This document shows, one piece after another, positions 1 through 22,669 of a DNA stretch of 64,000 bases. The stretch lies in the NCBI GenBank assembly GCA_947561715.1, contig OX387205.1:3353001-3417000 (forward strand). Direction: 5' to 3'. Positions within the stretch are counted from its first letter, which is position 1; each line of letters begins with the position of its first letter. The translations under genes were made by a program, and so were the position numbers. Below the pieces are notes generated by a model that was not told the origin of the DNA, did no database searches, and worked only from the letters and a program-made list of their open reading frames with translations. This DNA comes from Ascidia mentula (lineage: Eukaryota > Chordata > Ascidiacea > Phlebobranchia > Ascidiidae).

Positions 1-1309
1 ATACTTCGTAAATCATAAAAAAAAAACTGATAAATACAAATGCTCTTTCTAGGTCATTTTCTATTTGATTTTTCCATAAGTGGCGTAGACTTTTATGTTG
101 TCAAAAGCTGTCAAGTCGACCCGTAGTTCATATTGTCTATACTTGGTAATCTTGTGTAGGTTTTCAAGTCCTATATGAAGTTGGAGATAGTGATGGTTAA
201 ATTACAAGTATTTGGGCACGTTTAATACCACAAACAGGAAAAATTTAAACTAATTAGTTCAAAAGCGGTTTTAAAATGTTTCTGCAATAAGAAACAGAGA
301 ATTTGTTATAGACTTACAATAACCGAAATACTATTCGAATATCATCATAGGCACCCACCTATCCAGTAGTTACTATTAAAGTCCCCAAAACCATGTTTGT
401 AAGACCTCCAGTTCTTTCTGAAACTTGTTGAGCCGTTTACACGCCTTTGTATCAACTAAAATAGACAAGCAAGAACTTATTTTTACTCATCTATATTTAA
501 ATCTGCAACTATTTCTTACAATCCAACCACCCCCGTCAGTAGATTGGTCACAAAAGACTTGAAGTGACGATGTTATATCGCTTGGAAAAGGGTGTATAGT
601 GTAAACACCGCTTATACGTTTGTTCTGCAGAAAGCCCCTACAGTCTTTTGACGTTGTAAGCATGTTGGTTATGTCTATAAATGAATAAAACACAACACTA
701 ATCATGTGAATATAATACCAATGAATTATCACATTCTTTAGTCGTTTCGTTTATTTTGGTAAAATTACTTTTTTCATGGTCTACATGAGTGATGTTATGT
801 TTGCTTTGTTGTGATATCTGTATTAAACATTTAAATTTACATGCTTTAATAAATATGTATGTGCTCTTATCAGGTAACACGATTTACATAATGATAACTT
901 CGTGTGCTCATGTTACTAACTTACTTTCGAGTCGTGATAATTTATTTTCCAATGCTTCCAAACGTGAAGAAATTTGGTGGGATGCCATCCAGTCAAGGAA
1001 AACTTGGTTGTCCGGTTCCCCTTTTGGTCCGGGTTGTCCAATAGAACCTTTGGGGCCTATTAATCCTCTATTACCTTTGGGTCCAACGGGTCCTATCGAT
1101 CCTTTAGCACCTGATTGACTTTCAAACCCTTTTGGACCAATAGAACCTTTGGTTCCTGGAGAACCTTTTGGTCCAGCTGGGCCTCGTTTTCCAGGACGAC
1201 CAACTCCGCCATAAAATTCAGACGGAACTGAACAGGTTAGTTGGGCCGTTCGTGCCCCCTGACCAAATATCTCGCCAACACACAGTAGAAGCAAAAGAAA
1301 GCTAAACAT
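1..1309 (-). CDS. Ficolin-like secreted protein (collagen + fibrinogen domain), 3' end outside window
   Basis: Exon 1 (1309-925) starts at the Met that opens a clear signal peptide (MFSFLLLLLCVGEIFG). It continues with roughly 17 Gly-X-Y collagen triplets and a short coiled-coil-like stretch (SRLEALENKLSRLESK). It ends at a GTAAGT donor in phase 1. Exon 2 (674-520) encodes the fibrinogen-domain start: DCRGFL, SGVYTI, FCD, and DGGGWI at the donor. Exon 3 (455-359) gives IQRRVNGS and KHGFGDFNSNYWIG, and exon 4 (from 170 downward) gives ENLHKIT and YELRVDL. Phases agree through these exons. This order is that of ficolins, soluble pattern-recognition lectins that in chordates can start the lectin complement pathway; that role here is inferred. 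An earlier in-frame Met (1366) lies before a likely 5'UTR splice acceptor. After about 38 codons exon 4 meets a stop with no obvious donor, so the end is unresolved. The gene runs off the left edge. Confidence 0.85.
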
Positions 1310-4300
1310 TTGAGAAGGCTGTAAAAATATGTGGTTATAATCTAGTACCTTGTTGGAATAACCCAATTACAACAGTCTCAAAAACATTGATTTTCCTTCA
1401 CAATGTCACATTTGCTAAAAAGGCAACGCACGTAATGCATTGCACCTCAACTGCCTTTATTATATTGCACCGTTTTTGGTTCGTTGCACTCTGTAACTTC
1501 GGTAGTGTATGTTTGCATGAATACGTAGGCCTTTAATGTTTAGGAAGAATGGAAGCAAACAACATTGTTTTGTTTTGTTTATTCAAATCAATTGTAGTCT
1601 TCTGCCTACGCCCCGGGAGAAAATTCAAACTTTTTCACCCCATGGTTTTTACAGTAACATTGGTGGCATTGAACGCAAGCAATAAACTGCAATCCGAGGA
1701 ACTTGTTAACATTGCAAAGAAAAATTCAGCCCTGTTCCGCTCTGCTGATCAACCACTTCACCAGACGACTCTGCAAGTCAGCACTAAACTAGTTTTGCAA
1801 TTCCACTGAGCTTTCAGCTTGAGCCCAAAAGTTTGACTTTATTTGACGGAAGCGTGAACCTGTCAATCCCATGCAAAATATAAAGAATATCAACCGCCAA
1901 GACTCAATCGTCATAACCTAAATACTATAAAAAGGCCTCTGATCATCATTACATTTTTTATTGCAAAGAACATGTTTTGAACCTAATCTGCATCACTAAG
2001 GAATTGTGCATAGAAAGGTGTAGGTGCTAACATAAAATCAAAAACCAAAAATGTACAAACAGAATGAACGCATTTGTTGGAATAGTTAAGTTGTATTTTC
2101 AATGTTCAAAATAAAACACTCAAGAGATGGCAGTAGAGCATCACTACCGTACTGAATTACGGTGGTTGACGGTTGAAAATGGGACGCTAGATAGGAAATT
2201 GGGCAGAAGCATCTTTACAGGTACAAAATATATCTTTGTAACTCAGACACTATGTGTGTTTGCTAATTGCAATTGGTAATGCAACGATCTTAAAATTACC
2301 AAGCTAAAATATTGCTACGTCATCACCATCAAGGCAACGGCTGAGTTGTGCAATATGTCCTAAGCATGTGTGTAAGCAATTTCTGTTTCCCATGTGAACT
2401 GCCAAGTGCTAGTTCAAGTTATAGCATAAATTATATTCTCTGCTCTGGACTGGACTGCCTGTGTTGCAGTCTATCGTTTGGTCATTCTAGTCTACTACTA
2501 TCGCTTGATAAGTGCACGGTTTTCCTGCCTTAATCCACCGTAAGGACCGGGGTAGGGCATTCTATTCTATACTCTATCGGTTGCCATGTAAACTGCTTAC
2601 GTGAAAGGGATTGAAATTAACATTGCCTGCCTTGTGCCTTCGTATTGGCACTTGGTAAGAATAATATCGTATGTACAAATTGGAAGATTGATTATTTCGA
2701 AAACAGAAGACAGGAGATTGCCAAATTCCAGCCCCAAGGCTCATGCCTTTTAAAGGACCGTAAAAATGAGGTTCAACTAGGAACTCTATGCCTAAACTAA
2801 ACGCTACCTATGCGGCATAAGTTGCAATATCCAAAAAAAAACAATCTTGATACTCCTCCACGATGTATACGAATGGAAGGCATTGTTTCATCGTTTGCAG
2901 AGAGATATTTACAATTTGGAAATAGTAAAATATTGTATAAAGCAAATCATTACATCTTTTGTAAATTGGTGAAGTTAAGTTTCGATAACTAAACAAAATA
3001 TACCGAGAGCATAAGGATATCACGAACATAATTTCCACCTATATGATTTACAGTGTACTGACATTTTATACACTACATGGTTTTCGGTATAACCCTCAGG
3101 TATGTTTACTGTATTAGACCACACCTTACCAGTCTGCGTTTCTTTTTAAAAGTTAACGTCATATGAACAACAAAACGTCGGTCACGACACGCGGAAGTTT
3201 GTGATAAGAGTAATGGGAAAACCTGCGTCACTTCCTACGGCACCCAGCAATCTCATGTTGTGGTTATGTGAAGACACGAAAGTTTTCTTTAAGACGCTAA
3301 ACACCGGCATCGCATTTCTTAAAAATGCAGGGGGTAAAGAATACACTTTTTTCAGAGAAGTTCATGTACAATACCGCAACTCATTGGGATAAAATAAGGT
3401 TTTCGGACCTTGCTTGATCGACGCTAAGTTTAGCCGGGCAAATGACGTCATATACTTGTTCCAAACTGTTAGCAATTGAAGTGTATTTGTGGGGCGCTCA
3501 AAACCAATGTCGTATGCTGGGATAAGGATGTTCAAATTTTGCTCATAATTGAAATCGGAAAAACCAATGATTTAACCAACGTGACTCAACTTGGTTTGGG
3601 CAGCTCTCAGTCAGATAAACTTTTTTCATACGATTAAAAGGTTTAGCATGACAATTCCAATCACAAAAACATCTTCAAGCTTTTTTCTTGCTGCATGTGC
3701 GTTGTGTCATAGGAGATCGTCAACATTGCATATTAACACAATTAATTAACCATTGATGACGAAATCCTATTTGACTAATTCATTTCACAAAAGGCCACAC
3801 GTGAGTTCTAACTTTTGTATTTCTGACCTGATTTCAATTCAAACCTGATACAAAGGTACTTAATCATTTGTTAGATTAAGAATATGCGATTCTATTGGTT
3901 GAGTATATCGAATCGAAACAGCAAGTTAAGTGATCATAATGTAAACTGATTCACAAGCAAAGCATAGTTGAATTAGACGTAGAGTTAGACTAAGTCAAAG
4001 ACTGGGACAGAGACAGAGACTGACTGAATTAGTCAAGGAAGCATGCACATACATACACTACGATAAAAGACACTACAACGAAAAAGTCAGTTCGAAATTA
4101 CCACGACAAAAGCAAGCACAAAAGCTGGTCAGCAGAATACAGATCGCGTGCAAGCACAAGGGTTGATCATCGAAATGACCACAAGTCAATCAAACAAAAC
4201 AACAATGCGTGAGAATAGCGTGCGAGATTTGAAAAAGCACAATTCTACCATAAATCAGGAAATGAGGTCACCAACGAATGCGCATCCCTATTTACCACAT

Positions 4301-4400: not shown

Positions 4401-6765
4401 TCAATAACTTGACCCACTTGATTGATTGGGTGCAGCGAAACACGCAACTTTTTTCCATTTCAACACAACAAGACATAATATTACAATGATCACAGCCAAA
4501 CACGAGCCAAGCACTATGCTAGGTACATTTAGTGACGTGTTTGCTTCTGTGGCAGCTGACACTGGAGTCTTTGATTCAGCTTTTGTTTCGTAAACCATAA
4601 TAGAGAAATTGTTTACAGTGTAGAAGGGATATCCTGAGTGAACGGTGATCACATATGGACCAAGATCAGATGCTGAAACCTGAAAAACATGCTGGTGTTG
4701 GGCTTTTGTTCCAAAAATCATTGATATGTTATGCTTACATTGGTGAAGTACAAAACTACTTTGTTACTGGTCGACTTCGAAGTATAATGAACATTTTTTA
4801 TTTCCTTTCCTGAAAATTAAACATAGTATGATAGTATAAAGTACTTTTTATCTGACAGAAGATATTTAATACACAATGCGGTATCCGGTTTGGCACATCG
4901 CGGTTTCTTTAAGTTTGTCAATTCTGCATTTCAGCCATGAGCAGGTTTTAAGTGGGTAAAGTTCTTACTAAGTTGTTTTCGTTTTTATATAAGAAAGTCA
5001 AGTCTAAATCTGTTGGATAAACAATTAAATATTAAGTAAACGGCAGACAGGTCCACTAATTTGATTTATTAGGTCTCATCATTACAGGTTGATGCCTGGT
5101 GACGGTCTTGCCAGCTACAGAGCCCAGCCAAATCTCTTTGATAGCGATTAGGTATAGTGACAAGTCGTTACAAGGTACATGATTGCCACTATACATTTTA
5201 ATCTGATAACTTGGTTAATTTCAATTATCAACATGTATACCGTCTTTATGAGCAATTATCGGCTGAGGTCCAGATATTGGAGGGTTTGACTTAAATTCAA
5301 CTTCCGCAATCCCGTAAGTGTTCAGAGTAAGTGTTCGGTTTATTGTCATGTTTGGTTCTATCTGTGGAGGAACTGCAATAAACAAAATTCCTTCAGTAAA
5401 AACTCGAGGTACTATTGCAAATAAATGGTCGTATCAACAATTTACATAGTATGTTGAGTTTGACCGCTCTGCTCGCCGATTCACCGAAGGTTTTCGAGCT
5501 TTAATGACATGTCAAATTCACGTCATGATGTGTTGGCGTAAAAACCACGTTGACCGACTTCATCTGTAAGTAACAAAGCGGTAGTCATATGCGCAGCTGT
5601 TTCATTTAAATTGCATTTTTTAGATTAGTTTACATGCATATGAACTTACTTTTTCACCTCCCCACGTTTGATTGATAAGGGTGATATTGACGTAATGCAT
5701 TTGGCTGTTAAACACATCACAAAACAATAATGCACTGGTGTTGGTGTAAAACGTCACTCGAGAATTAGAAAAGTTTATATCGAGAAGGCGGCCTGAAAAT
5801 GATAGGAATAGAATCAACTTCTATCAGCTGGTGGCAATTGTTCAACAAACCTCGATAACATCCCACATTGTCGCCACTCCAATTAGCTGTTGCGCCACAA
5901 GTGATTGTAGTTTGTCTTCCAATTATTTGAGATCCCTTTGTAATCACGGTACGATTACACTGCACGGTCGCAACTGTTCCATAAACCCATTTTTCCGGTA
6001 GATTGGGCGAAATTATTTTTAAATGTGTAACTTCAGGACAATCTTAGATTTGAAAAAAAAAGCGAAACAACTTTAGGTTTATGAGTTTTAAACATTACCC
6101 ACATGTATTAGGTAGCCTACTTTGTAATGATATTCTAGGAGATTGTAGTGCATCTGATTGATCACAGCGAATTGCAGGATCAGGTATATAAAGAAACATT
6201 CCATCAAAAAAGTCTGGTCGAAGAATTGTTACATTCAAAACTATCTGAGAGGGATTTCGTTGTGCGTTAAACTCAGCCAAAGATGAGTTGTATGAATGAT
6301 CAGTATTAGGAAAGGAGTATCCAATGTCAAAAGCATTGTTGGCCCTGATATCATTAAGTAGAACAATGTTCAGCTTTTTAGTAAAGTTAAATGTAATTTC
6401 TATGGACGGAATTCCTTTTGCCCACACAAACATATCACCAGTTGTTTTTCCATTTGAATTTATGGTTACATTCCAACATCGTCCTCAAAAACAAGAGGCG
6501 TATAAACATAAACAATTGCAACGCACGCAAGTTAAATTGTCACAAAATTCTACAGTAATCAGCCTTGGCAGCTTAGTGTCACCGATATATCTTTAAAAAT
6601 ATTGATCACGCTTGTAAAGATATCTTCAGTATCTTGCTATTCAAATGGAATCAATATTAACGCACTTGCCTTTAATTAAAACTTACCCGCACTTGCGAAC
6701 TGATTCATTTGCATAATCAACAACAACAACAAACTTCCCAGCGACAGTTGCAACAATCCAGCCAT
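4401..6765 (-). pseudogene. CCP/Ig receptor copy A, damaged paralog
   Basis: Exons are homologous to copies B and C: e1 6765-6687 (signal peptide, M-A-G-L-L-Q start), e2 6483-6103 (Ig-like), e3 6042-5851 (CCP, four Cys and Trp), e4 5792-5650 and e5 5563-5446 (Ig halves), e6 5372-5241, e7 4809-4739, e8 from 4679 (end of third Ig domain, then a membrane helix around SIVLGSCLAVIIVILCLVVL). All splice sites and phases are kept. Exon 5 has an in-frame TAA at 5503-5501, where B and C have a sense codon. The two cytoplasmic-tail exons present downstream of B and C are not found. If expressed it would give a short secreted protein; if exon 8 is read through it ends ...SSGSSY. It could instead be a polymorphic null allele, or exon 5 could be skipped in some transcripts. 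Confidence 0.75.
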
Positions 6766-6779
6766 AGTTCGTTATTCTG

Positions 6780-6990
6780 TCTCTACACTCACAGAGTGGG
6801 TTTACAAAGCCTCGTTTCAAACAAAAATGTGGTTTGGCAGCACACCTGTACGTTTTAATTACACACATTTACAACAAATAACAGGAAAGTGATTAAACAG
6901 TTTGTTCAGGTTATGAAAAAACAAAAATCTTGTTATGTAAGAAGCCGAATGGCATATTGTACCGTCAAAACTAGGAACTGTTTTTCTAAT
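6780..6990. promoter_or_regulatory. 5' flank of receptor copy A (also duplicated at about 14030 and 18890)
   Basis: The stretch directly upstream of copy A is alignable to 14030-14300 and to the flank of copy C at 18890-19200. Shared strings include 'gtggtttggcagcacacct' and 'acgttttaattacac' (A versus 14030). It is the likely promoter region by position; no core promoter motif is obvious. Confidence 0.5.
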
Positions 6991-7019
6991 GTTTGGAATG
7001 CCCACTGGTACTTAGAAAC

Positions 7020-7510
7020 TGTCAATTCGAAACTATGTCTGATTATAAATTACTTCCGCGTGAATATCAGGTTTCGTTCAGTGTCGTTAGCCTGTTTAAG
7101 TACGTTTCAAAAGATGTTGCGCTCATAAATTTATTGGAAAAATTACAAAAAGACACAATGAACAAACTAAGCTTTACCTTATTACATATCTAACAGGCAC
7201 TTGAGTTAAGACTCGACTTCTTTTATATTTCAAAACAACATTTACCAGCAATTTTTCGCACTCCTGTAGGTTCTCCGATTTTTTCAGTTCTAGCCAACAT
7301 CACCATGCAACGTACAGCTTTTACTTCACAACACCATCACGACTTTGGTTCCGCTTTGTAGGTGACACGGTCGTCATCATGGCTAAAGAGGAAGTGGGAC
7401 GGTTTTTGGATGGCATTCTTAGACGTAAATGTCACAAACGTTCGTTTTTGGTGCTTGGTGTTTATATTCCTCGACAATTTCTGCTTTGTCTAAACGAAAA
7501 ATGACAAAAA
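7020..7510 (+). mobile_element. Penelope-like retroelement, reverse-transcriptase relic (copy 1)
   Basis: Conceptual translation in more than one frame shows typical Penelope-like RT blocks: LLPREYQVSF..VVSLFK, then WFRFVGDT (the RxVDDT catalytic block, here with Gly for the first Asp). The element is broken and has no full-length ORF. The same relic, with the same flanks, lies at 14490-14960, so it was carried along in the receptor duplication. Confidence 0.7.
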
Positions 7511-8654
7511 AAATGATTTACCACTGCGCTACACGCGTTTTAATAAAGAACTCCTATCTAAACTAATGCACTTTTGGCCAATCTTTACCTGCAGCATTGT
7601 GACGTCAGACTTATTCTCGACGCGAAGTGGGAAAGATTGGAAACAATAGCCATAGCCAGTAAAGTACTGGCTTACCCAACAGTTGGTACGTTTGTTCTTA
7701 TTTGTGTTAACTTGTACAGTACCTGGACTGGGCAACATTAGTTGCGAGTCATATGTATCTACAATGTACACGAATAATGCAGATATAATTGTTAATTTTG
7801 TGGAAAGCGTAACTTTATCGCATCATGTTTACCACTGTTATGCTGTGACATTACAACTTGTATGTGAATGTATAATGTTTTCACAGAAAAACCGCTGCAC
7901 TTGATACATTGCATCGCCAACACAAACATTCGTTGAGTATATTCAAGAGTGAACGTCTCGGGTAGCAATTGGGTGGCGCTTTATCAAAGGTCAACTGGGA
8001 GGAAAAGCGCAGGACCAGGCAACGCACATGAGGTTGTAACAGGCAGAGAAAGCATAAGTTCACTCGTAATTTTGTTATTCAAGATAAATGTGATAAAAAT
8101 AAACTGGTGCGTGGTCGCGTTTACTCATGCTATTTTTTTAAACACTTAAATGAAACATTTTTTGTCTCCCAAAAAACAAAATGGTTTAAGGAAAAGGGCT
8201 GTTTCGAAAACTATATAAACAGAAAGAACGTATCTTTGACATACCTTTTGGGCGTTCGTTGAAATAATTAAGTTATATTTGCAATGCCGAACAAAAAAGC
8301 TATGCACACGAGATGGCGGTAAAGCATTAGTACCTTATCGAATTACGGTGGTGTTGGCGATTTTACAATAGGACGCGAAACTGGCAGATGTATCTTTACA
8401 GCTACAAAATAAATGCATGTTTTTGATGTTTGCATTGCAATTGATATTGGAAGAAAATCATGTTACTCCTCCAATGTATATGTGATTTGTGCGCATCGAA
8501 GGCATGCCATTATGTCATGCCTTAAGATATTTACAGGTTGGAAACATTAAAAGATTGTGTAAAGCAAATCATCACATCGTTTGTGGTGAAGTTTTTCGGT
8601 TTCGATAAGTTAACAATATATCCTAAGAGATCACAATGATATCACAAAAACACT
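7510..8654. repeat. Spacer duplicated at 14960-16100
   Basis: This block between the Penelope-like relic and the 3' end of receptor B is repeated with few changes at 14960-16100, offset by about 7.45 kb. The paired small ORFs inside it (near 7683 and 15138) share sequence only because the DNA is duplicated. They have no recognisable domain and I do not call them genes. Confidence 0.75.
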
Positions 8655-11600
8655 CTAAAATGTCTCATAAACTGAATCGGCAGAATTAATTTGTTGGTTC
8701 ACACCGACGTTAATGTAGTTATCGGCAGTTTTCTGCGGATTACGACTATGCTTTTTTGCTGCAGTATTTCCTGGATTGCGTTGAGTTACTCTGCAACAAA
8801 AACAAATAAATTTGTAATGTTTTGCTTTGCCGAATTAACGTAAAATGCTATATCCTAATATTTATGCAATACTAGCTTAAATAATCCAAAAAGGGGTCCT
8901 TACTGAGGCTGCTTTTGGAAATTCCTTGTGTCTTCTACTGGTCTGTTGGTCGCTGACGGAGTCACAACATTTCCTATGAAACAGTAACCAATCAGAAATA
9001 ACAAGCAGATATTGGTTTTTAGCGGGCCAAAAAGGCATAGTTTATTTCTTTCCAATTAAACATAGACAGCGACATTCAAACATCATAACTTTTCGCCAGC
9101 TTTGTTTCCTATCAACCAAAAACTTATTTTTAGCTTGACCCACCTGATTCGTTAGAAGCAGCGAAACACCCAACTTTTTTCATTTTCATTATGACAAGAC
9201 ATAATATTACAATGATCACGGCCAAACACGAGGCAAGCACGATGTTCGTAACGTTTGTGGATGTGGTTGCTTCTACAGTAGCCGATACTGGAGTCTTGGT
9301 TTTAGCTTTTGTTTCGTAAACCATAATAGAGAAATTGTTTACAGTATAGAAGGGATACCCTGAGTGAACTGTGATCATATATGAACCAAGATCAGATGCT
9401 GAAACCTGAAAAACATATTGGTGTTGAGCTTTGATTCCACAAATCATTGATATGTTATGCTTACATTGGTGAAGTACAAAACTACTTTGTTAGTGATCGA
9501 CTTTGAAGTATAATGAACATTTTTGATTTCCTTTCCTGTAAATTAACAATTGTACGATTGCATAAAGTACTTTTTATCTAACAGTAAAAATATAATACAC
9601 AAAGTAGTATTAGGTATGGTTGAACACGGTTTTATTTCTTTTTGCCAGTTACGCGGTTCAGCGAAGAACAGTTTTTTTTGTGGGTAAAAGTTCTTACTAT
9701 GTTGTGTTCTTTTTTCGAAGCCAAAACTAAGATTCCAGAAAATTAAGCAGAAGTTTTTAACACAAACTGTGTTCATCATTAGGGCTATATTGCTGAATGA
9801 ATGAGATTGACCACACAGGCTGTGCCCACCCACATGAAAATGGATGCAAAGACGAGCGAAACTCAAATGTTAAATGACCATAGCTCTCCTGTGACACGGG
9901 GCAAGGCTGTGACAGGTGATTTGCAATTTATCAGACTGTAGTACACAGCTTCCTATCCCAATTAGTCAGCTCTAAGTTTTTTGCACGTTTTTATCTTCCT
10001 TTCGGCATTTTATATAGGCAAGTTGTGTGTGTTTGTTTTTTAGCATTTTGCTTGTATTACGCCACTGTGTAATAGCTTGTGAAGTGTATCGTTTAAGTTT
10101 GTTTTGGAATGGATGTGGCAGGGTTTTCATATTCTTTTACTGTTTCGTTTCAATAGGCTGATAAGTTTGTTTTGCAAGACTTATTTGAAGGTAGATAATT
10201 TCTGACGTAAAGATATTTGTTCGGATACCAGGCTCAGGGTTATTACAAAGAAAGTCGTTACATACGGGTTACTATACATTTGTATTAGAAAACTTTCCAT
10301 GCATGAGCAACATTTAATTCTTGACCATAGTCTCACCGTCTTTATTAGCAGTTATTGACAAAGATTTTTTATTGGGAAGATTTGACTCAAATTCAACTTC
10401 CGCAATCCCATGAGTGCTCAGAGTAAGTGTTCGGTTTATTGTCATGTTTGGTTCTATCTGTGGAGGAACTGCAATAAACAAAATATCTTCAATACAAGCT
10501 CGAGGTACTATATTAGAACTGCAAATAAATGGACGTATCAATAAATTACATAGTATGTTGAGTTTGACTGTTCTGCTCGCCGATTCGCGGAAGTTTTTCG
10601 AGCTCTGGAAACACGTCACACTCACGTCATGATGTGTTGGCGTCAAAACCACGTTAACCCACTTCATCTGATAATAGCACATAGATAGTCACACAACACT
10701 TTTTATTTAACTACAGTATAACATGTTGCTGAATTAACGCCCAAGAAAGTGTACACACCTTTTCACCTCCCCACGTTTGATTGTTAAAGGTTATATTGAT
10801 GTAACGCATTTGACTGTTGTATGTATCACAATATAATAACACCTGAGTATTGGTGTAAAATGTTTTGCTCGAAACATTTATGTTCAAGTCCAATAGATAA
10901 CCTGCAAATGGAGCATGTAAAACAGTGTTTTCCAACCAGTGTTACGCGACGGCATTCCAGGTGATACGCGAGCACCTTTACGTAATTTGCGGATATAGTT
11001 CGAATTTAAACAATTGTAAGTGATCTGAAAATGTTCTTTACTTCATTCCCTAGGTTATTTTGTAACACTCAACTAGGAGGTACGTGCCGAAATTGTTTTA
11101 CCTTTGAAGTGGTACGTAACAAAAAGTTTGGGAATAACCTTTATAACAATGAATATCGACATCATCCCATTCAGCTGTTGCACCGCATGTGATGTTAGTT
11201 TGGCGTCCAATTATTTGAGATTGCTTTTCTAGCACAGTGTTGTCACACTGTATAGTTGCAGTTGCTCCGTAAACCAATTTTTTGTTCGGACTTGGCGAAA
11301 CCATATTTAGACGTAGAGGTTGAGGACATTCTTTTATCGCACATAAAAAAAATATTTAAGCGTTGACTCGTTCGATATAAACTACATTAAAGTAAACTGT
11401 ACCAACAAACGAGATTGGGCGCGTATTTCTTAATTTGTTTGCTTCATTGCAATCCCATCCATTTCCAGTAACATAAAAAAATTTTCCATCGAACTGGTGT
11501 GGTCGAAAGATTGTAACATACAGGACTAATTGCGAAGCATTTCGTTTTAAAGCCAGTTCGGACAAAGATGGGTCAGATGAATAAAGGTATATAGCCCAAC

Positions 11601-11899
11601 TGTAACTTCCAATGTATAGCCCCTCGCTCGAATGCACTTCAAACAGATATCTGAAATCTGGACTTTTTAATGTAAAATTGAATATTACTTGAATAGATGG
11701 AACGCCATACGCCCATACAAACATGCCGCCCGAAAACCTTCCATTAAAATGCATTGTAACATTCCAACAATCCCCTTAACAAAAACAAATGTGAACAACG
11801 GTAGGGTTCTAAAAGACGACATCAATTACCTGCACTTGCACCCTGAAAAATCCCTGCAACCAACAAAAATACTACTACGCATATGCAGATATTTTTCAT
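8655..11899 (-). CDS. CCP/Ig single-pass receptor B with tyrosine-motif tail (521 aa, 10 exons)
   Basis: Exons: 11899-11831 or -11830 (signal peptide), 11774-11403, 11330-11139, 10901-10759, 10667-10550, 10468-10337, 9535-9465, 9405-9144, 8973-8904, 8790-8655. Every junction is GT-AG and phases sum to 522 codons including the stop. Order: signal peptide; Ig-like N-terminal domain (CWNVT, FVWAYG, LVLYVTIFRPHQFDG); one CCP/sushi module (ECP..IQC..ITC..W..HC); an Ig C2-like domain (LLYCD...TPTHHDVSVTC); a cysteine-poor Ig-like domain (VSASDLGSYMITVHSG); a membrane helix (NIVLASCLAVIIVILCLVIM) with a KMKK stop-transfer; and a tail ending DNYINV...SVYETF. The tail tyrosines suggest SH2-type signalling (inferred). 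The layout recalls Ciona complement-receptor-like proteins, but I cannot confirm orthology. Confidence 0.85.
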
Positions 11900-14030
11900 G
11901 TCCTTTTTACCTTTGCGCATGTAAAAAATGGATTCAATCTCTCAGGACTGACTTTTTATGTCCAGTGCACCTACGTTTATGGCGCCCACGAGTTATTCAC
12001 TACCTGCAGTCTGCCAAACGTATGCAGTGCTAATTTTTTCAACAAACTTCTACCAAGTGCTCCTACAATCAGTTACTAATGTTTAAAACCCAATGGAGGT
12101 TATCAGTTGGATAGATAAATTATTTTAGTAAGATAACATTGTATTTAAAGAGTGCATAATAAATGAAACATGCATCAGCATTTGTAGCAGCAGTGTATTA
12201 AATGCTGCAAATCCAGGTATGAAAACAGTAGTATGAGACAGTAGTAAATAAATAGCCACTATTTGTTACATGACTTTTCATGATGTGGTTACGTCCTGCT
12301 TGTAAAAAGTGCAATGTTGTTGTATATGTTGATTATTTATGTGCAAAGGTATAAAACAACGACGTGGGCTACGCGTTGGCACAAATATACCTAAATAGAA
12401 AATGACGAATAGGTTCGTGATGTAACATGCTGTGATGTCGGAACAGGTGTTTGCCTGCCTACAGATAGTTACAGATTTTGACAAGTTCATAACGGTATGT
12501 AATTTCACGTTCTTACCAAAGTTTATACTACTTCCAAAATGTCTTCATAATGCTACACCGATATGTGTTAAGATCATTCAACAAAGAGGGTACCCTCTGT
12601 CTCCTTTCGACTCCTGCCGCGTAAATGCAATTAAAAGTACACATTCCAAAAGGTTGAACAGCTAGACACAATCTCACATTGATCTCGAGCACAAACAGAA
12701 ACGAGCAAATAATGGATTTGTACCACAATATCCGTATACATGGTATACCAATACCACCTAACTTACAAATATTTCGTTTTTTTATGAATGTGATTTCATT
12801 TTATCGTTCAACAAAGAGTAGACACCCGCTATCCTTTCTTCTGTTACCAATATGGATTGCTTAGATATTTGTTATGTGTGAAACAGTGATGGTATATGGT
12901 TTATTTCCGCCATGACGCGTGCAGCGCTTATTCGATTAGTTTATTTGTTCCACTACCCATTTTATTGACTAATTATGGGAACCGCGACAATTGCTAGCGT
13001 ATTTACAAAAACCAGGGCAATGCAAAATATATGACCGAGGGCCCCTCAACACGGAAGGCAGAAATATTTCATGCAATCGCCAGACGGTTGTGTGATTGCG
13101 CATCAGTGTATCTCGACCGTATTATACACCGCAAAGCTGTATGTGCTCTCGTGGCTCAGTCGGTAGAACGTCGGGCCTGGTTACCGCTGGGCCGTGAGTT
13201 CAATCAACACTGCTGCAAAGGATATATTATTTTAAAAGATGATTTGTGTTGATTGGTTTTTATTATCTTTGCATTGATGTATGAATTCGCATAAGTGTCC
13301 AGAGATTTTTCTTTTGCGTTCCCACTTAAGAGGAAACGGGCCTTAGATTCAGCTTGGTGACAATGCCTAGGCTGCGATTCCATTGTGTCTTGTTATTGAT
13401 GTGTAATAGCTAAGCCTAAGATTACAAAAATGTAAGGTTTTAAAAGTGGGACGATTTTGCCGAAACAACTCGTCATTACAAATTTTTTTTACCACTACTG
13501 GTTATATCTACATTATTACAAAAACTAACAAAGAGCTTCTTGACCTTGTTTCAATAAGATGACAATACATTAATTGAAATTTCCATTTCAAACTCAATAC
13601 AATAAACGTAATGTTCCCTTGCAACATTATAATGCAGCTCCACATTGAGACATGTCATCATTGAAACAGACAAAAAATTGTTTGCTGCATGATTTTCATG
13701 AGAGTCAAGTGTTGAAATTAGTATTGGCCAATCTTTGAGAATGATTGATTAAAGACATTCCTTCTGAGAAATGATGCCGAATCACATCACAAATCAGGTG
13801 TTCATTGTAGTAAATCTATTTACGTCAGGCCAACATTATTAAACAGAACTCTTCAGGTAACAATACTTTTGGTACGTCAAACGCAGGTCAAAATGCTATT
13901 AACCTGAAGGATACAATATCGAAGCATCGAATCCCGGTATGGTAAAAAAAATCTATATATGCATTGGGGCTTGGGCAACCTGAGCATGGTTCCTGTCTAG
14001 GGTATCCTCGATTTTAATCCCGGTATTGGA
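11900..14030. other. Intergenic stretch upstream of receptor B
   Basis: No gene is supported here. It holds the tRNA-like sequence at 13145-13213 and, at its right edge (about 13925-14035), two short segments ending in B-box-like strings (cgaatcccggtat and taatcccggtattgg) that look like SINE debris. A similar string lies near 54330. Confidence 0.5.
13145..13213 (+). repeat. tRNA-like sequence (pseudogene or SINE head)
   Basis: It has an A-box-like segment (gtggctcagtcggtagaac) and a B-box-like segment (gagttcaatc). It aligns with 27319-27391, including the unusual central hairpin around cctggtta. The T-stem is broken here and the 3' side does not close the acceptor stem, so a working tRNA is unlikely. 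Confidence 0.55.
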
Positions 14031-14490
14031 TTTACAAAGCCTCGTTATAACACAAAGGTGGTTTGGCAGCACACCTATACGTTTTAATTACACAGACTGA
14101 CAACAAATCGTAATAGAAAAATAATCAAACAGTTTTAAACAGCATTGCTCAGGCTATTAAAAAAAGTCTTTTTAAATGTTAGCGCAAATGGTTGTTCTTT
14201 GCGATAATTGTATTGAATAATGAGTTACACGTCGTCATTCATCCAAAAGCCGGTACAAAAGCAATGTTGCCGAAAGTATCACAATTAGGTGCTAAAAAAG
14301 CCCACATATGTACTGAAACTTTGCATCTGTGTCTTATTCGAATTTAACATACAGGAAATATGTGTATAAGCTGCAGACAGATGGCCACTGTTTCGACCTA
14401 AAAGGCTTTGTATTAAACCCAATGGCGCATTGTATTGTCAAACTAGAAACAGTTTTTCTACTGTTTAGAATGCCCACTGGTCTTACGAAG
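14030..14490. repeat. Orphan copy of a receptor 5' flank
   Basis: The block from about 14030 matches the 5' flanks of copy A (6797-6990) and copy C (18890-19200), and it is followed by the same Penelope-like relic as copy A. No receptor exon 1 is attached on its left; instead the homology starts right at SINE-like debris. It marks a rearrangement breakpoint or a deleted gene. Confidence 0.6.
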
Positions 14491-14960
14491 CCGTCAATTC
14501 GATGTCTGATTACAAATTACTTCCTCGTGAATACCAGGTTTCGTTCGATGTCGTAAGCCTGTTTAAGTCCGTTTCAAAAGATGCTGCGCTTATAACTAGA
14601 CAAATTACAGAAAGACACAATGAACACACTAAGCTTTACCTTATTACATATCTAACAGGCACTCGACTGCTTTTGTATATCAAAACAACATTTACCAGCA
14701 ATTTTTCGCACTCCTGTAGGTTCTCCGATTTTTCAGTTCTAGCCAACATCACCATGCAACGTACAGCTTTTACTTCACAACACCATCACGACTTTGGTTC
14801 CGCTTTGTAGGTGACACGGTCGTCATCATGGCTAAAGAGGAAGTGGGACGGTTTTTGGATGACATTCTTAGACGTAAACGTCACGAACGTAAATTTTCGT
14901 TATTGGTGCTTGGTGTTTATATTCCTCGACAATTTCTGCTTTGTCTAAACGAAAAATGCT
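14490..14960 (+). mobile_element. Penelope-like retroelement, reverse-transcriptase relic (copy 2)
   Basis: Duplicate of the relic at 7020-7510. It encodes LLPREYQVSFDVVSLFKSVS, the typical 'DVVSLF' block of Penelope-like reverse transcriptases, and later the WFRFVGDT block in another frame. It is broken. Its flanks on both sides match those of copy 1. Confidence 0.7.
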
Positions 14961-16100
14961 CAAAAAAATGATTTACCACTGCGCTACACGCGTTTTAATA
15001 AAGAACTCCTATCTAAACTAATGCACTTTTAGCCAATCTTTACCTGCAGCATTGTGACGTCAGACTTATTCTCGACGCGAATTGGGAAAGATTGGAAACA
15101 ATAGCCACAGCTAGTAAAGTACTGGCTTACCCAACAATTGGTGCGTTTGTTTTTATTTGTGTTAACTTGTACAGTACCTGGACTGGGCAACATTAGTTGC
15201 GAGTCATATGTATCTACAATGAACACGAATAATGCAGATATAATTGTTAATTTTGTGGAAAGCGTAACTTTATCGCAGTATGTTTACGCTGTGACACAAC
15301 AACTTTTTTATGTGAATGTATATTGTTTTCACAGAAAAACCGCTACACTTGATACATTGCATCGCCAACACAAACATTCGTGGAGCACATTCAAGAGTGG
15401 ATCGTTTCAGATAGCAATTAGGTGGCGCTTTTTCAAAGTCAGGTTGGAGGAGAGGCGCAGGACCAGGCAACGCACAAGAGGTTGTAACAGGTAGAGAAAG
15501 CATAAGTTCACTCGTAATTTTGTTATTCAAGATAAATGTGATAAAAATAAACTGGTGCTTGGTCGCGTTTACTCATGCTATAATTATAAACACTTCAATG
15601 AAAAATTGTTTTGTTCCTAAAAACCTAAATGGTTCAAGGAAAAGGGATATTAAAAAACAATATGAAAAGATTGAAGGTATCTTTGATATACCTTTTGTGC
15701 CTTCGTTGAAATAATTAAGTTATATTTTTAATGTTTTTAATAAAAGCTATACACACGAGGTGGCGGTAGAGCATTGCTACCTTATCGAATTACGGTGGTG
15801 TTGGCGATTTTACGATAGGACGCGGAATTGGCAGATGTAACTTTACACCAAAAAAATAAATCTTGGTTTTTGATGTTTGCATTGCAATTGATATTGGAAG
15901 AAAATAGTTACTCCTCAAATGTATATTTGATGTGTGCGCATCGAAGGCATGCCAATAAGTCACGCAAAAAGATATTTACAAGTTGGAAACAGTAAAGATT
16001 GTGTAAAGCAAATCATCACATCGTTTGTAAAGTGGTGAAGCTAGGTTTCGATAAGTTAACAATATAACCTGAGAGATCACAATGATATCACAAAAACGTT

Positions 16101-18877
16101 CTAAAATGTCTCATAAACTGAATCGGCAGAATTAATTTGTTGGTTCACACCGACGTTAATATAGTTATCAGCAGTTTTCTGTGGATTACGGCTATACTCG
16201 TTTACTGCAGAGCTTCCTGGAGTGCGTTGAGTTGCTCTGCAACAAAACAAATGAATTTGTGATGTTTTGCTTTGCCGAATTAACGCAAAATGCTATATGC
16301 TAATATTTATGCAATGCTAGGTTAAATAATCCAATAAAAAATTCTTACTGAGGCTGCTTTTGGAAATTGCTTGTGTCTTCAACTGGTCTGTTGGTCGCTG
16401 TCGGAGCCACAACAGTTCCTTTGAAACAGTAAAGTTACTAACCAATCAGAATTAACAAGCAGATGTTGGTTATTGGCGGGCCATAGAGGTTTGGTAACCA
16501 TTTCATTTCTTTCCAATTAAATATAGACAGCGACATTAAAACAACACGACATGTCGCCAGCTTTGTTTCCTATCAACCAAAAACTTATTTTTAGCTTGAC
16601 TCACCTGATTGGGTGAAAGCAGCGAAACACCAAACTTTTTTCATTTTCATCATGACAAGACATGATATTATAATGATCACAGCCAAACACGAGGCAAGCA
16701 CGATGTTCGGAACGTTTATGGCTGTGTTTGCTGCTGTAGTAACCGACATTGGAGTCTTTGATTCGGCTTTTATTTCGTAAACCATAATGGAGAAATTGTT
16801 TACAGTGTAGAAGGGATACCCTGAGTGAACGGTGATCATATATGAACCAAGATCAGATGCTGAAACCTGAAAAACATACTGGTGTTGGGCTTTTGTTCCA
16901 CAAATCATTGATATGTTATGCTTACATTGGTGAAGTACAAAACTGCTTTGTTAGTGATCGACCTTGACGTATAATGAACATTTTTGATTTCCTTTCCTGT
17001 TAAAAAACAACTGTGTGATTGTATAAGTAGTTTTTTTTTATGATACTGAAAAAATATAATACACAAAGTGGTATTCGGTATGGTTGACGGTTTTATTTTA
17101 TTTTACCAGTTACGCGGTTCAGCGAAGAACAGATTCGATGTTGGTAAAGTTCTTACTGAGTTTAAAAGACAAGCGAAAGTCAAACAGTAAATGACCATAG
17201 TTCTCCAGTTACACGAGGCAATGCGACGTTTCACAAAGAAAGTCGTTACAATGAGCATACCGGTTACAATACATTTAAATTAGTAACTTTCAATGCATGA
17301 GCAACATTTAATTCTTGATCATAGTCTCACCGTCTTTATAAGCAATTATCGGCTGATGTCCAGATATTGGTGGATTTGACTTAAATTCAGCTTCCACTAT
17401 CCCATGAGTGTTCAAAGAAATTGTTCGATTTATTGTTATGTTTGGTTCTATCTGAGGAGGAACTGCAATAAACAAAATATCTTCAATACAAGCTCGAGGT
17501 ACTATTAGAACTTCAAATAAATGGAAGTATCAACAAATTACATAGTATGTTGAGTTTGACCGTTCTGCTCGCCGATTCACCGAAGTTTTTCGAGGTCTGG
17601 TAACACGTCACACTCTCGTCATGATATGTTGGTGTGAAAACCACGTTAGCCCACTTCATCTGTATGTAACAAAGCAGTAGTCATATGTGGTACTTGTTTC
17701 GTTTCAGTTGCATCATTTTGAGATGAGTTTACATACATATGAACTTACTTTTTCACCTCCCCACGTTTGATTGATAAGGGTTATTTTGACGTAATGCATT
17801 TGACTATTAAACATATCACAAAACAATAATACACTGGTGTTGGTGTAAAATGTCACTATAGAATCAGCAATGTTTATATCGAGAAGCCGACCTAAAAATG
17901 AAAAAACAGTAACAACTTTGCTGAAAACCTTGCTTATTACTCAGCTCGTGGAAAGTGCTCAACAAACCTCGATAACATCCCACATTGTCACCACTCCATT
18001 TGGCTGTTGCACCACAAGTAATTGTAGTTTGTCTTCCAATTATTTGAGATTCCTTTGTAATTATGGTATTGTCACATTGCACGGTCGCAACTGTTCCATA
18101 AACCCATTTTTCCGGTAGATTAGGAGAAATTATTTTTAAATGTGGAACTTTGGGACAATCTTTGATTTGGAAAAAATCGAGGCAACTTAAGGTTTAGGAG
18201 TTTTAAACATTACCCACATGTATTAAGTAACCTACTGTGAAATGATATTCTAGGAGATTGTAGTGTCATGTCTGATTGATAACAGTCCCATCCATAATCA
18301 TATATATTAACAAACATTCCATCAAATAAGTCGGGACGAAGAATTGTTAAATTCAAAACTAACTGGGAGGAGTTTCGTTGTACATTTAACTCAACCAAAG
18401 ATGAGTTGTGTGAATAAAAACGGTAAGGATAGGAGTATCCAATATATAACGAATTGTTGGCCCAGATTTCAAGATATAGATCATTGTGCAGCTGTGTCGA
18501 AAAGTTAAATGTAATTTCAATGGACGGAATTCCTTTTGCCCACACAAACATATCATCAGTTGTTTTTCCATTTGAATGTATGGTTGCATTCCAACATCGT
18601 CCTCAAAAACAAGAAGCGTGTAAACATAAACAATTGCAACGCATGCAAGTTAAATTATCACAAAAGTACAGATGAATCAGCCAACGCTGCTTGGTGTTGA
18701 TCAAAAAATCAATTTCGCACACAACGATACAACGAACGTCAGTTTTTGTCTTATTCAGGTGCAATCAGTAGTAACGCACTGCTGATTAATTATAAACTTA
18801 CCCGCACTTGCCAGTTGATTTGTTTGCAAAATCAACAACACCAAACTTCCCAGTAAAAGTTGTAACAAACTAGCCAT
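16101..18877 (-). CDS. CCP/Ig single-pass receptor C with tyrosine-motif tail (527 aa, 10 exons)
   Basis: Exons: 18877-18802, 18601-18218, 18159-17968, 17891-17749, 17659-17542, 17462-17331, 16996-16926, 16866-16605, 16418-16349, 16236-16101. Together they give 528 codons with all phases consistent. Start MASLLQLLLGSLVLLIL is a signal peptide. Then come an Ig-like domain (CWNAT, FVWAKGIPSIEITFNF), a CCP module (YCP..VQC..ITC..W..GC), an Ig C2-like domain split over exons 4-5, a cysteine-poor Ig-like domain (exons 6-8), a membrane helix (NIVLASCLAVIIIISCLVMM), and a tail with EYSRN, DNYINV and SVYETF. Exon 2's donor is GTGGGT, chosen because it restores the frame to the CCP exon. The ectodomain is closest to copy A, while the tail and 3' flank match copy B. 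Function is inferred as cell-surface recognition, perhaps of complement or non-self. Confidence 0.88.
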
Positions 18878-20401: not shown

Positions 20402-22669
20402 TTAAGCCCTGCTGCCATTGCGAATGAGGCCGTTGTTGGAAAAACCACCGGGAAGCGATCCAAATGCGAAATAGGCAGCGGTTTGCTCATTTGGTGATAA
20501 GTATGTGAGTTTCGGTGCCTTGCCTGTGCCGCTTCTTAGCCGTCGTAGTCGTGAAATGGTCTTAGAAACGTCACTATCCTTGTTTTTTTGCGCAAAATTA
20601 CTGTTCAAAAAATCGTCGATGTTGTCGTTCGTGATTTCCAAATAAAACAGGAAGAATCCGACGTCGCCGAATTTTGCCGCCGATATCAGGTTTTTCCGTA
20701 GACCTTGTAAAATCGCATGCGTGTTTTCCTCCACGGCTTTCTGTAGAGTTGTAAAGTTTTCCACTTCCTTGTTCTTTCCACTATTTTCGCACAACCACAG
20801 AAGAAAGTCGGTTCCGCTTTGGGAGTCGTTCATGTGAGGACGAAATCGCCACATGAGGGCAACAAACAACAAGCAGAGCATAGACAGGAAAGCGACCTGG
20901 GCACAGGCGATTACCCACGGGGTTCTAAATGAGAAATATATGCATTGGTATTTGCTCTGACAAACAAAAACGGGGTCGGTATTTCCTAGAATCACTCCGA
21001 AAATGTACAACAGGATTGCTCCGGAAGCAACTAACAAGGAGGCAGAATTTCTGACGAAGTAGGCGTTCCTGATGTTAAAGTGGTTTTTGGGCTTTGCTTT
21101 GTTCGGGAGATTATTTGTTTTTTTAACGTACAGTTTTTGCAATTTTTCTGCAAGTTCAGAAACTGTTAAAATCTGCCGTAGTGCTAGAAGCTGTTTGTAT
21201 GCATCAACTATGCGAATATTGTCTATGAAGCTTTTTTTCGTTACCGTTATTCCATCTTTTCCGTTTTCAGACAGTTTCCTGAGCTGGTCTTGTGGTTTCA
21301 TTTCCCGAACCGATTCAAGACGATAAAGAGTCGACGGGTTGTCTAAATCTAACATCAACTTTGACACCATGGCCCTGTGTTTTTCACCACAGTTTTCGAA
21401 GTTTATAAATTGGTCACCGGTTTGTGCAAATGGATTAAAAAAGTCACATTTTTCTTTTGTTGCCGTGCGACGCGTTTCCACATAAGCCTTGATTTCAACG
21501 TTTTCACGCCAGTCTTCTGCTTCCCAGAGTTTACTTTCCAGAAACAATCGTCTTGTTTTGTTCAACATCTCTCGTTCCTTTTGGTTACGAAGAATCTGTA
21601 ACAGGGCAAGCGCATCGCTTTGTATGCTCAATAAGACCTGAAAGTTGTTGAAACCGAAACGATCCAACAAGCTTTCTTTGAGTTTGCGTGTGCTCTCAAT
21701 TTGACGAAGAGTGAGTAACTGAGCGAGTGTTTCAATTCGATCGTCTAATGTCCTCAAATCATCATTACTTTTGTCAATTAATTTTTCACTGCACCACGTT
21801 GACGAATCAGCAAATATACGACGCAGTATTGTGTCTGTGGGTAAACGGATCATCCTTTGAACGCTGGACTCGACTTGAGATTCGTGACGACATACTTGCG
21901 TCATAAGTGTTTCTAACGTTGGTGACGTATCTTCTTCGCAGAAATCTAGCATTTGTAACCTCTCATCTGTGGGTTCAACAACCAAAGATTCTTTGATTAT
22001 TTCTTCTTTGATTTCTATGTTCATTCCGTAGCAAATAGGGCTTGCAAAGCTGTATTTTGTAAGTAGGTCAAGGTATGGAAAAGCATCAAAATATCGAACA
22101 GCGTCATTGTGCACTTGATCGAGCATTTTTTTATATTCCGCCGGCCAACGGTCTTCGGTTTCTGGCGAATCAAAAAACGTCTTCGTGATGTGTCTGCTCG
22201 CCGTTCTGAGATGGCGCTCGTAATCGGCCGAATCTGGCGCATCAGCTGTGGTAACCAACCTGATAAGCATATCCGTCGAACTATCGAACTCAGAAACCAC
22301 GTTAAACAGCTTCCTGAATCGCGAAACTTCGTTTGTAACTTGAGGGATGTACTCCCAGAAGTTGATTGCCACAAACATGACACAAGATACCAGCATTGAG
22401 ATCCACCAAAAGTTAAGAAGGAAAAAGTCTGCTTCCTCTGTGCATTTTTCGTTCACGAACATCATCTGTGGTTCACTAAACGAATCAGTAACATTGCCGT
22501 TGAGAGGAAGACACCTCAATGCGTCGTTATCAGATTTAAAGACTAAAAATAAACTTAAACCAGCCACAGCAGTCACAACGAAACCTTGAGCCGTTTCCCA
22601 CCATGGCTTCAGATCATTTACAGCTAACAGGTCAGCCTGGGGGTGGACCTCGCCAAGCGACATAACCAA
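20402..22669 (-). CDS. LRRC8/pannexin-like four-span channel protein without LRRs (755 aa, intronless)
   Basis: A single open frame encodes 755 residues. The N-terminus has LKPWWE followed by a first span (about 28-45) and CLPL, as in LRRC8 proteins. A second span (about 82-104) ends in NFWEYIP, the counterpart of the LRRC8 NFWFKFP turn. A loop of about 435 mostly charged, helical residues follows, then spans 3 (about 540-562) and 4 (about 581-604, before MWRF). Each predicted extracellular loop has two cysteines (RC..EKC and VCQSKYQC), as in pannexins and innexins. LRRC8 subunits form volume-regulated anion channels, but this protein ends with about 150 residues and no leucine-rich repeats. 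A channel role is therefore an inference from topology and short motifs. Starts at 22669 and 22663 (MSLGE) are both possible. Lack of introns may mean an old retrocopy. Confidence 0.7.
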   Translation of the reverse strand: MVMSLGEVHPQADLLAVNDLKPWWETAQGFVVTAVAGLSLFLVFKSDNDALRCLPLNGNVTDSFSEPQMMFVNEKCTEEADFFLLNFWWISMLVSCVMFVAINFWEYIPQVTNEVSRFRKLFNVVSEFDSSTDMLIRLVTTADAPDSADYERHLRTASRHITKTFFDSPETEDRWPAEYKKMLDQVHNDAVRYFDAFPYLDLLTKYSFASPICYGMNIEIKEEIIKESLVVEPTDERLQMLDFCEEDTSPTLETLMTQVCRHESQVESSVQRMIRLPTDTILRRIFADSSTWCSEKLIDKSNDDLRTLDDRIETLAQLLTLRQIESTRKLKESLLDRFGFNNFQVLLSIQSDALALLQILRNQKEREMLNKTRRLFLESKLWEAEDWRENVEIKAYVETRRTATKEKCDFFNPFAQTGDQFINFENCGEKHRAMVSKLMLDLDNPSTLYRLESVREMKPQDQLRKLSENGKDGITVTKKSFIDNIRIVDAYKQLLALRQILTVSELAEKLQKLYVKKTNNLPNKAKPKNHFNIRNAYFVRNSASLLVASGAILLYIFGVILGNTDPVFVCQSKYQCIYFSFRTPWVIACAQVAFLSMLCLLFVALMWRFRPHMNDSQSGTDFLLWLCENSGKNKEVENFTTLQKAVEENTHAILQGLRKNLISAAKFGDVGFFLFYLEITNDNIDDFLNSNFAQKNKDSDVSKTISRLRRLRSGTGKAPKLTYLSPNEQTAAYFAFGSLPGGFSNNGLIRNGSRA

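What the first reader, a model, noticed from the sequence alone, without database searches (positions are those of the whole stretch)
4401..18877. Tandem cluster of CCP/Ig transmembrane receptors beside a ficolin-like gene
Seen: three paralogous minus-strand genes with signal peptide, Ig-like, CCP, Ig-like, Ig-like, one membrane span, two of them intact, next to a collagen-fibrinogen (ficolin-like) gene. Known: CCP modules bind complement proteins; ficolins can start the lectin pathway; tunicates have variable complement-receptor-like proteins used in blood and self/non-self biology. Inference: this may be a locus for complement-linked or allorecognition sensing, with a soluble lectin and membrane receptors together.
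Basis: partly seen in the sequence, partly recalled or inferred. Interest (0 to 1): 0.75.

Follow-up and report, generated by a model that had tools for sequence, protein, structure and literature searches.

The report
Fester-co-receptor-like genes in solitary ascidian
A solitary sea squirt carries a large family of cell-surface receptors built like the 'fester co-receptors' that take part in telling self from non-self in colonial sea squirts, which hints that this recognition machinery may be older than colonial life.

Summary
The window comes from Ascidia mentula, a solitary phlebobranch ascidian. Genes B and C are intact 10-exon genes; A is a broken copy. Three more intact copies lie just left of the window, and relatives sit in four further clusters, about 25 loci in all. 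All 9 tails read have a C-terminal Y-E-x-x motif; 8 of 9 also have Y-x-[N/D]. This is the published build of Botryllus fester co-receptors (FcoR), not of a complement receptor such as vCRL1. B is a mosaic (old 5' half, homogenised 3' half), like fester/uncle fester. Against a full match: no fester-type partner was found, the first domain is not proven to be IgV, no Botryllus sequence could be compared, and recent chr7 duplicates show no diversifying selection. The ficolin neighbour is real but probably incidental.

The parts
16101..18877 (-). Gene C, intact, 10 exons, 521 aa: 18877-18802, 18601-18236, 18159-17968, 17891-17749, 17659-17542, 17462-17331, 16996-16926, 16866-16605, 16418-16349, 16236-16101
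   Evidence: open frame, GT-AG introns, phases 1-1-1-0-1-1-0-1-2
18236..18601 (-). C exon 2: V-like ligand domain, one exon, Cys 28 and 132
   Evidence: AF2 model of this exon pLDDT 66 with V-set-like strand order; no Pfam/PDB sequence match
17968..18159 (-). C exon 3: CCP/sushi module, four Cys
   Evidence: Pfam Sushi E 0.0021, below cut-off; four Cys conserved in 6 of 6 copies
16605..17891 (-). C exons 4-8: two Ig domains (exons 4+5; 6+7+8) and membrane span
   Evidence: profile of this part matches CD22 E 2e-5 in PDB sequences; hydropathy peak 3.0 at residues 413-448
16101..16418 (-). C exons 9-10: cytoplasmic tail with NYINV and C-terminal SVYETF
8655..11920 (-). Gene B, intact, 10 exons, 528 aa; tail NYINV and SVYETF; mosaic of an old 5' half and a 3' half homogenised with C
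   Evidence: dS V 1.62, CCP 0.71, exon 4 0.86 against 0.07-0.38 in exons 5-10; Fisher p 9e-17 on rounded counts
10815..10863 (-). Approximate mosaic breakpoint in exon 4 of B: DNA similar to C begins here and runs 3'
8655..8973 (-). B exons 9-10: cytoplasmic tail
4401..6765 (-). Gene A, broken copy: exons 1-8 only, in-frame stop in exon 5, no match to the tail exons
5501..5503 (-). In-frame TAA in exon 5 of A
1..1366 (-). Ficolin-like neighbour (signal peptide + collagen frame 1366-908; first fibrinogen-C frame 750-487; further frames run left out of the window). Neighbour, not part of the receptor family
   Evidence: Pfam Collagen 1.7e-9, Fibrinogen_C 5.8e-7; downstream frames read by eye

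Best explanation
[quoted passage not shown] Shown: signal peptide, V-like domain, one sushi module, two Ig domains, one membrane span, and (in most tails read) a Y-x-[N/D] motif followed by a C-terminal Y-E-x-x motif; six genes here and about 25 loci in five clusters; segmental similarity (gene conversion or recombination) that keeps the 3' (signalling) half of B and C alike while their 5' (ligand) halves differ. Inferred: the V-like and sushi domains bind a ligand on another cell or microbe. The tail tyrosines are then phosphorylated by a Src/Syk-type kinase, and Y-[I/V]-N recruits a Grb2-type SH2 adaptor (a LAT-like docking site carried by the receptor itself). Copies that lost this motif (D, keeping only TVYESL) or that carry an ITIM-type motif (chr4 member, SVYLNL) would tune or inhibit. 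The site of action is most likely hemocytes, in self/non-self or immune sensing.
For: Species identity. Gene models. Six copies in 264 kb (next-best exon-profile match E 0.04). Genome-wide relatives: with the exon series read in six genes on five fetched stretches from the other four clusters. Tail motifs. Ig fold of domains 3-4. FcoR description (520-610 aa; signal sequence, variable-type Ig, sushi, two C2 Ig, TM, long tail with ITIM, hemITAM or core Y-x-x-[ILV]; several clusters; [quoted passage not shown] Mosaic B; fester/uncle fester share only exons 6-11.
Against: No Botryllus FcoR sequence was available, so common descent with FcoR is untested. No fester-type partner (Ig, sushi, three membrane spans) was recognised beside any copy. 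The first domain has no sequence match to Ig. The sizes (498, 515, 516, 521, 528 aa) lie partly below 520-610. Relatives in other clusters differ: a possible CUB-like stretch upstream in one (L054, E 0.024, below cut-off), a half sushi in the chr1/chr4 members read, part of Ig3 missing in L055, and only E 0.27 for the V profile in the chr9-distal stretch L051. Recent chr7 duplicates show pN/pS 0.48 in the V exon, no sign of diversifying selection. No expression or polymorphism data.
Confidence: 0.6

Rival explanations
1. The architecture is convergent: an ascidian-specific family of Ig/CCP receptors made by exon shuffling of phase-1 modules, unrelated by descent to FcoR, with a general immune or adhesion role.
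For: Most exon borders, including those around the V-like and CCP exons, are phase 1, which eases shuffling; other clusters vary in their modules (half sushi in L054/L055, CUB-like stretch E 0.024 in L054); no FF partner was recognised and no DnaJ gene lies within 250 kb of a cluster.
Against: The full order V-like, sushi, Ig, Ig, TM, tyrosine tail, the approximate size and the shared-3'/divergent-5' pattern all coincide with the FcoR/fester description.
Confidence: 0.27
2. A complement receptor or regulator of the vCRL1 type working with the neighbouring ficolin.
For: One CCP module and a ficolin-like gene next door.
Against: Only one CCP, three other ectodomain modules, tyrosine-motif tail; the ficolin lies among unrelated genes.
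Confidence: 0.05
3. Cell-adhesion molecules of the IgLON/nectin kind in which tail tyrosines serve endocytosis or scaffolding rather than immune recognition.
For: Best PDB-sequence matches include OBCAM and neurotrimin besides CD22.
Against: Tandem expansion, a broken copy, segmental conversion and 27-66% identity of V exons within one cluster are unusual for adhesion genes (my judgement).
Confidence: 0.08

Closest known systems
Fester co-receptors (FcoR), Botryllus schlosseri (PMC12065747)
   Same: Type I, signal sequence, V-type Ig (V-like here), sushi, two Ig, one TM, long tail with core Y-x-x-[ILV] in most members, multigene, several chromosomal clusters, one of the Botryllus clusters without partner genes
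   Different: Solitary phlebobranch host; no recognised fester-family partner; Y-x-N plus Y-E-x-x pair; 498-528 aa; sequence relation untested
Fester / uncle fester (FF1/FF3)
   Same: N-terminal Ig-like plus sushi; related genes share the 3' half while 5' halves differ
   Different: FF have three membrane spans, a short tail and no known signalling domains; here one span, two further Ig domains and a tyrosine tail
Ciona vCRL1
   Same: Ascidian membrane protein with CCP
   Different: Described as complement-receptor-like with CCP domains (passages); here a single CCP within an Ig receptor; sequences not compared
Mammalian CD22 and other ITIM/Grb2-recruiting Ig receptors (signalling recalled)
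   Same: Ig domains match in sequence profile; tyrosine motifs in the tail
   Different: CCP module and V-like domain without the canonical Cys pair; no canonical ITAM spacing

Membership tests
Fester co-receptor (FcoR) | Signal sequence and single membrane span, type I | tested here: met
   (one span in 6 of 6; hydrophobic N-terminus above the scan threshold in 5 of 6, not D); no dedicated signal-peptide program was run
Fester co-receptor (FcoR) | N-terminal variable-type Ig domain | tested here: inconclusive
   no Pfam/PDB profile match; AF2 model pLDDT 66 with V-set-like strand order; fold search not available
Fester co-receptor (FcoR) | One sushi domain after it | tested here: met
   weak Pfam matches E 0.001-0.0021, below cut-off; four Cys in 6 of 6. 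Only a half sushi in the chr1/chr4 members read
Fester co-receptor (FcoR) | Two C2-type Ig domains | tested here: met
   two Ig domains: profile match to CD22, OBCAM, neurotrimin; the Ig set (C2 or other) is not resolved; single-protein Pfam matches below cut-off
Fester co-receptor (FcoR) | Long tail with ITIM, hemITAM or core Y-x-x-[ILV] | tested here: met
   core motif in 7 of 9 tails read (B, C, D, E, L053, L054, L055; not F, not L051 gene 1):
Fester co-receptor (FcoR) | 520-610 aa | tested here: inconclusive
   498, 515, 516, 521, 528 aa in five intact genes: 2 of 5 within the range
Fester co-receptor (FcoR) | Paired with an adjacent fester-family gene (except one FcoR-only cluster) | tested here: not met
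   no further V or CCP relative in 264 kb, and no V+CCP-only locus among the genome matches; FF genes are said to share little homology and could be missed, and one FcoR-only cluster exists in Botryllus
Fester co-receptor (FcoR) | Sequence homology to Botryllus FcoR; location in the fuhc locus; role in allorecognition | not testable with these tools
   no Botryllus sequence held; a HECT gene 42 kb from the chr1 cluster only, no DnaJ within 250 kb of any cluster
vCRL1-like complement receptor | CCP domains in the plural (passage; exact number recalled only) | tested here: not met
   one CCP per gene
Canonical ITAM receptor | Two Yxx[IL] spaced by 6-12 residues (recalled) | tested here: not met
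   in C YINV and YETF are 12 residues apart, but the second is not YxxI/L and the first ends in V

The most novel reading that the evidence does not exclude
The receptor family that executes histocompatibility in colonial botryllids predates coloniality. In a solitary ascidian it persists as a five-cluster, roughly 25-locus repertoire of innate receptors whose tails carry their own LAT-type Grb2 docking site in place of the missing LAT adaptor, with member-to-member switching between Y-x-N, ITIM-like and motif-less tails.
Probability: 0.35. Interest if true: 0.85.

Novelty: new variant of a known kind. Interest (0 to 1): 0.6.

Why it matters
Botryllus allorecognition is a leading model for missing-self immunity. 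In the literature searches I ran (open-licence PMC only; the five papers listed were not opened) I saw FcoR receptors described only for botryllids. A family of the same build in a solitary phlebobranch would show what such receptors did before there were colonies to fuse. It would also make the question directly testable, by comparing ligand halves, tails and expression across ascidians.

Tried and rejected
Complement-receptor reading: rejected on architecture (one CCP). Canonical ITAM: the second motif does not fit. Positive selection on the V exon: A versus C gives dN/dS 1.39 (49 nonsynonymous, 11 synonymous), different from the rest of the gene (67, 50; Fisher p 0.0014), but dN > dS alone is not significant (p 0.22), A is a broken copy, the other 14 V pairs are 0.29-0.77, and seven chr7 duplicates give 0.48; so it is not claimed. 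Fuhc-locus synteny: a HECT gene lies about 42 kb from the chr1 cluster, but by my own rough estimate (not a call) this has about a 10% chance of happening at random; no DnaJ gene lies within 250 kb of any cluster; not claimed. Fold search of the V model: not accepted. Typing error: (alignment A5) began its first row with five residues that are not in the gene; it was remade as A6 and A5 was not used. The exon-2 donor of gene E was first set wrongly and corrected.
Full report
SPECIES. The window is G000:C73:3353001-3417000 of a 195.8 Mb genome. The eight chromosome-scale contig lengths that I read (27.92, 19.88, 22.72, 22.34, 21.17, 19.87, 19.66 and 15.45 Mb) and a 19,461-base contig fit chromosomes 1, 2, 4-9 and the mitochondrion of Ascidia mentula, kaAscMent1.1 (27.92, 19.88, 22.72, 22.35, 21.17, 19.87, 19.66, 15.45 Mb; 19.46 kb) in PMC11109543 (passages seen). 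Besides C73 I read 18 of the other 78 contigs for length; chromosome 3 was not among them. Total bases and contig number differ slightly from the paper (195.8 Mb in 79 contigs against 197.0 Mb in 95 scaffolds). Ascidia mentula is a solitary phlebobranch. The window lies on chromosome 9.

GENES. Each intact gene has 10 exons on the minus strand: signal peptide; V-like domain (one exon); CCP (one exon); Ig domain in two exons; Ig domain plus membrane span in three exons (one intron only 56-59 bases); two tail exons. Phases are 1-1-1-0-1-1-0-1-2. C (521 aa) and B (528 aa) are intact. A has a stop in exon 5 and no match to the tail exons. Fetching 100 kb on each side and searching with A-C found three more copies, all left of the window and all minus strand: D (-11483 to -13923), E (-35359 to -37970) and F (-39634 to -41826, window coordinates). 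All three are open (498, 515, 516 aa). Exon HMMs built from the six copies and run over 6,935 frames of the 264 kb found these six; the next-best matches have E 0.04 or worse.

DOMAINS. The CCP keeps four Cys in 6 of 6 copies; Ig2 keeps a Cys pair in 6 of 6; Ig3 has no conserved pair. Pfam sees only weak Sushi, Ig_3, V-set and I-set matches below cut-off. CCP modules are common in this genome (150 scored matches listed, none in the window), so the CCP alone says little. A profile of Ig2-Ig3 from seven members matches CD22 (E 2e-5), OBCAM (2e-4) and neurotrimin (6e-3) among PDB sequences. The V-like exon has no match (nine members). Its AlphaFold2 model from three window sequences has mean pLDDT 66, with strands in V-set order and a short helix before the F strand (strand naming is mine). 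Its two Cys are not at the canonical Ig places (my reading). So 'IgV' is likely but unproven.

TAILS. Motifs read in 9 tails: B and C NYINV + SVYETF; E NYINV + SVYEVW; F LYVNQ + TFYESF; D no first motif, TVYESL; chr9-distal L051 gene 1 DYIDM + LYEYS; chr7 L053 AYCNV + NAYETF; chr1 L054 VYLNP + HYEII; chr4 L055 SVYLNL + HYEII. Thus Y-x-[N/D] is present in 8 of 9 and Y-E-x-x at or near the C-terminus in 9 of 9; Y-x-x-[ILV] in at least one motif is present in 7 of 9. These are paralogues, not independent cases. Not counted: gene A (no tail), L051 gene 2 (stretch ends before it) and L052 (none found). SVYLNL fits the ITIM consensus and Y-x-N the Grb2 SH2 preference (both recalled).

FAMILY SIZE. 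Searching the genome with protein C gave 89 exon matches, and with a chr7 member 123, at E <= 10. Grouped by place, by eye, loci with two or more exon matches are: chr9 6, chr7 9 (one rearranged, one without a V match), chr9-distal 2, chr1 4, chr4 4; that is 25. There are also five single-exon fragments at these clusters, and four weak matches elsewhere (C2 15.35 Mb; C67 1.32, 1.34 and 1.95 Mb; E 0.002-0.76) that I did not count. Many chr1 and chr4 matches are weak on their own (mostly E 1e-6 to 0.03), but one locus each was read and has the exon series. The chr1 and chr4 members read have only a half sushi (two Cys), and L055 lacks part of Ig3. In the chr9-distal stretch L051, CCP and Ig exons match clearly but the exon before the CCP matches the V profile only at E 0.27.

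MOSAICISM. Between B and C, dS is 1.62 (V), 0.71 (CCP) and 0.86 (exon 4), then 0.07-0.38 from exon 5 to the tail; synonymous differences 5' against 3' differ with Fisher p 9e-17 on counts rounded. B and E share exon 6 (dS 0.14), with 98% bootstrap in its tree; other nodes of the five small trees are mostly weakly supported. This is the pattern described for fester and uncle fester, whose exons 6-11 are shared while the 5' ends are unrelated (PMC12065747, section read).

COMPARISON. PMC12065747 (abstract, passages, section 8 part 1 and section 11 read) describes FcoR as 520-610 aa type I proteins with signal sequence, V-type Ig, sushi, two C2 Ig, TM and a long tail with ITIM, hemITAM or core Y-x-x-[ILV]. 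There are 53 loci so far, in three chromosomal haplotypes, one of them with FcoR only. It also says that LAT and SLP-76 homologues are not found in ascidian genomes and that residues upstream of the core motif resemble LAT and SLP-76 sites, and that other botryllids express the same candidate proteins. In its text 'solitary', 'Ciona' and 'Styela' do not occur. My full-text searches showed no report of such genes outside botryllids in their listings; the five papers listed were not opened, and the library holds only open-licence PMC papers.

SELECTION AND SYNTENY. Evidence for diversifying selection is weak. A/C V exon dN/dS is 1.39, the other 14 V pairs are 0.29-0.77, and seven chr7 duplicates give pN/pS 0.48 (V, one member cut at 323 of 375 bases), 0.70 (CCP) and 0.54 (Ig3c+TM) over 21 pairs. 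A HECT gene lies about 42 kb from the chr1 cluster (Botryllus has a HECT ligase beside each fester gene), but no DnaJ gene lies within 250 kb of any cluster.

VERDICT. The best reading is an FcoR-like signalling receptor family in a solitary ascidian. Membership in FcoR proper is not claimed, because sequence homology is untested, the partner gene was not found and the V fold is unproven.

Noticed in passing
left of window, -29716 to -27962 (L038:284-2038:-): 585-aa frame with NACHT (E 1.3e-15) and NOD2 winged-helix domains, an NLR-type gene between family members E and D
   Followed up: partly
left of window, -5248 to -4880 (L040:4752-5120:-): Guanylate-binding-protein-like frame (Pfam GBP E 7e-4, just below cut-off), so the cluster sits among other immune-type genes
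   Followed up: no
-45015 to -44473, -43342 to -42941, -2821 to -2009 (L036, L040, + strand): Three frames with matches to DUF2807 'head GIN' adhesin-like repeats (E 0.033, 2.9e-4 and 4.8e-13; only the last above cut-off), a domain named for bacterial adhesins, inside and beside the cluster; possible old horizontal transfer
   Followed up: no
window 20402-22729 (-): 775-aa single frame beside gene C with only a weak LRRC8/pannexin-like match (E 0.01); identity unknown
   Followed up: partly
G000:C67:13.008-13.016 Mb: Run of CCP modules, many with the same score, spaced about 277 bases: looks like a recent tandem expansion of a sushi exon
   Followed up: no
G000:C1:2847184-2848677: HECT ubiquitin-ligase exons about 42 kb from the chr1 receptor cluster, reminiscent of the HECT ligase beside fester in Botryllus
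   Followed up: partly
window 6936-9698 and 14409-17157: Intergenic DNA duplicated together with the gene 3' ends (88% identity), which outlines a duplication unit of about 7.4 kb
   Followed up: partly
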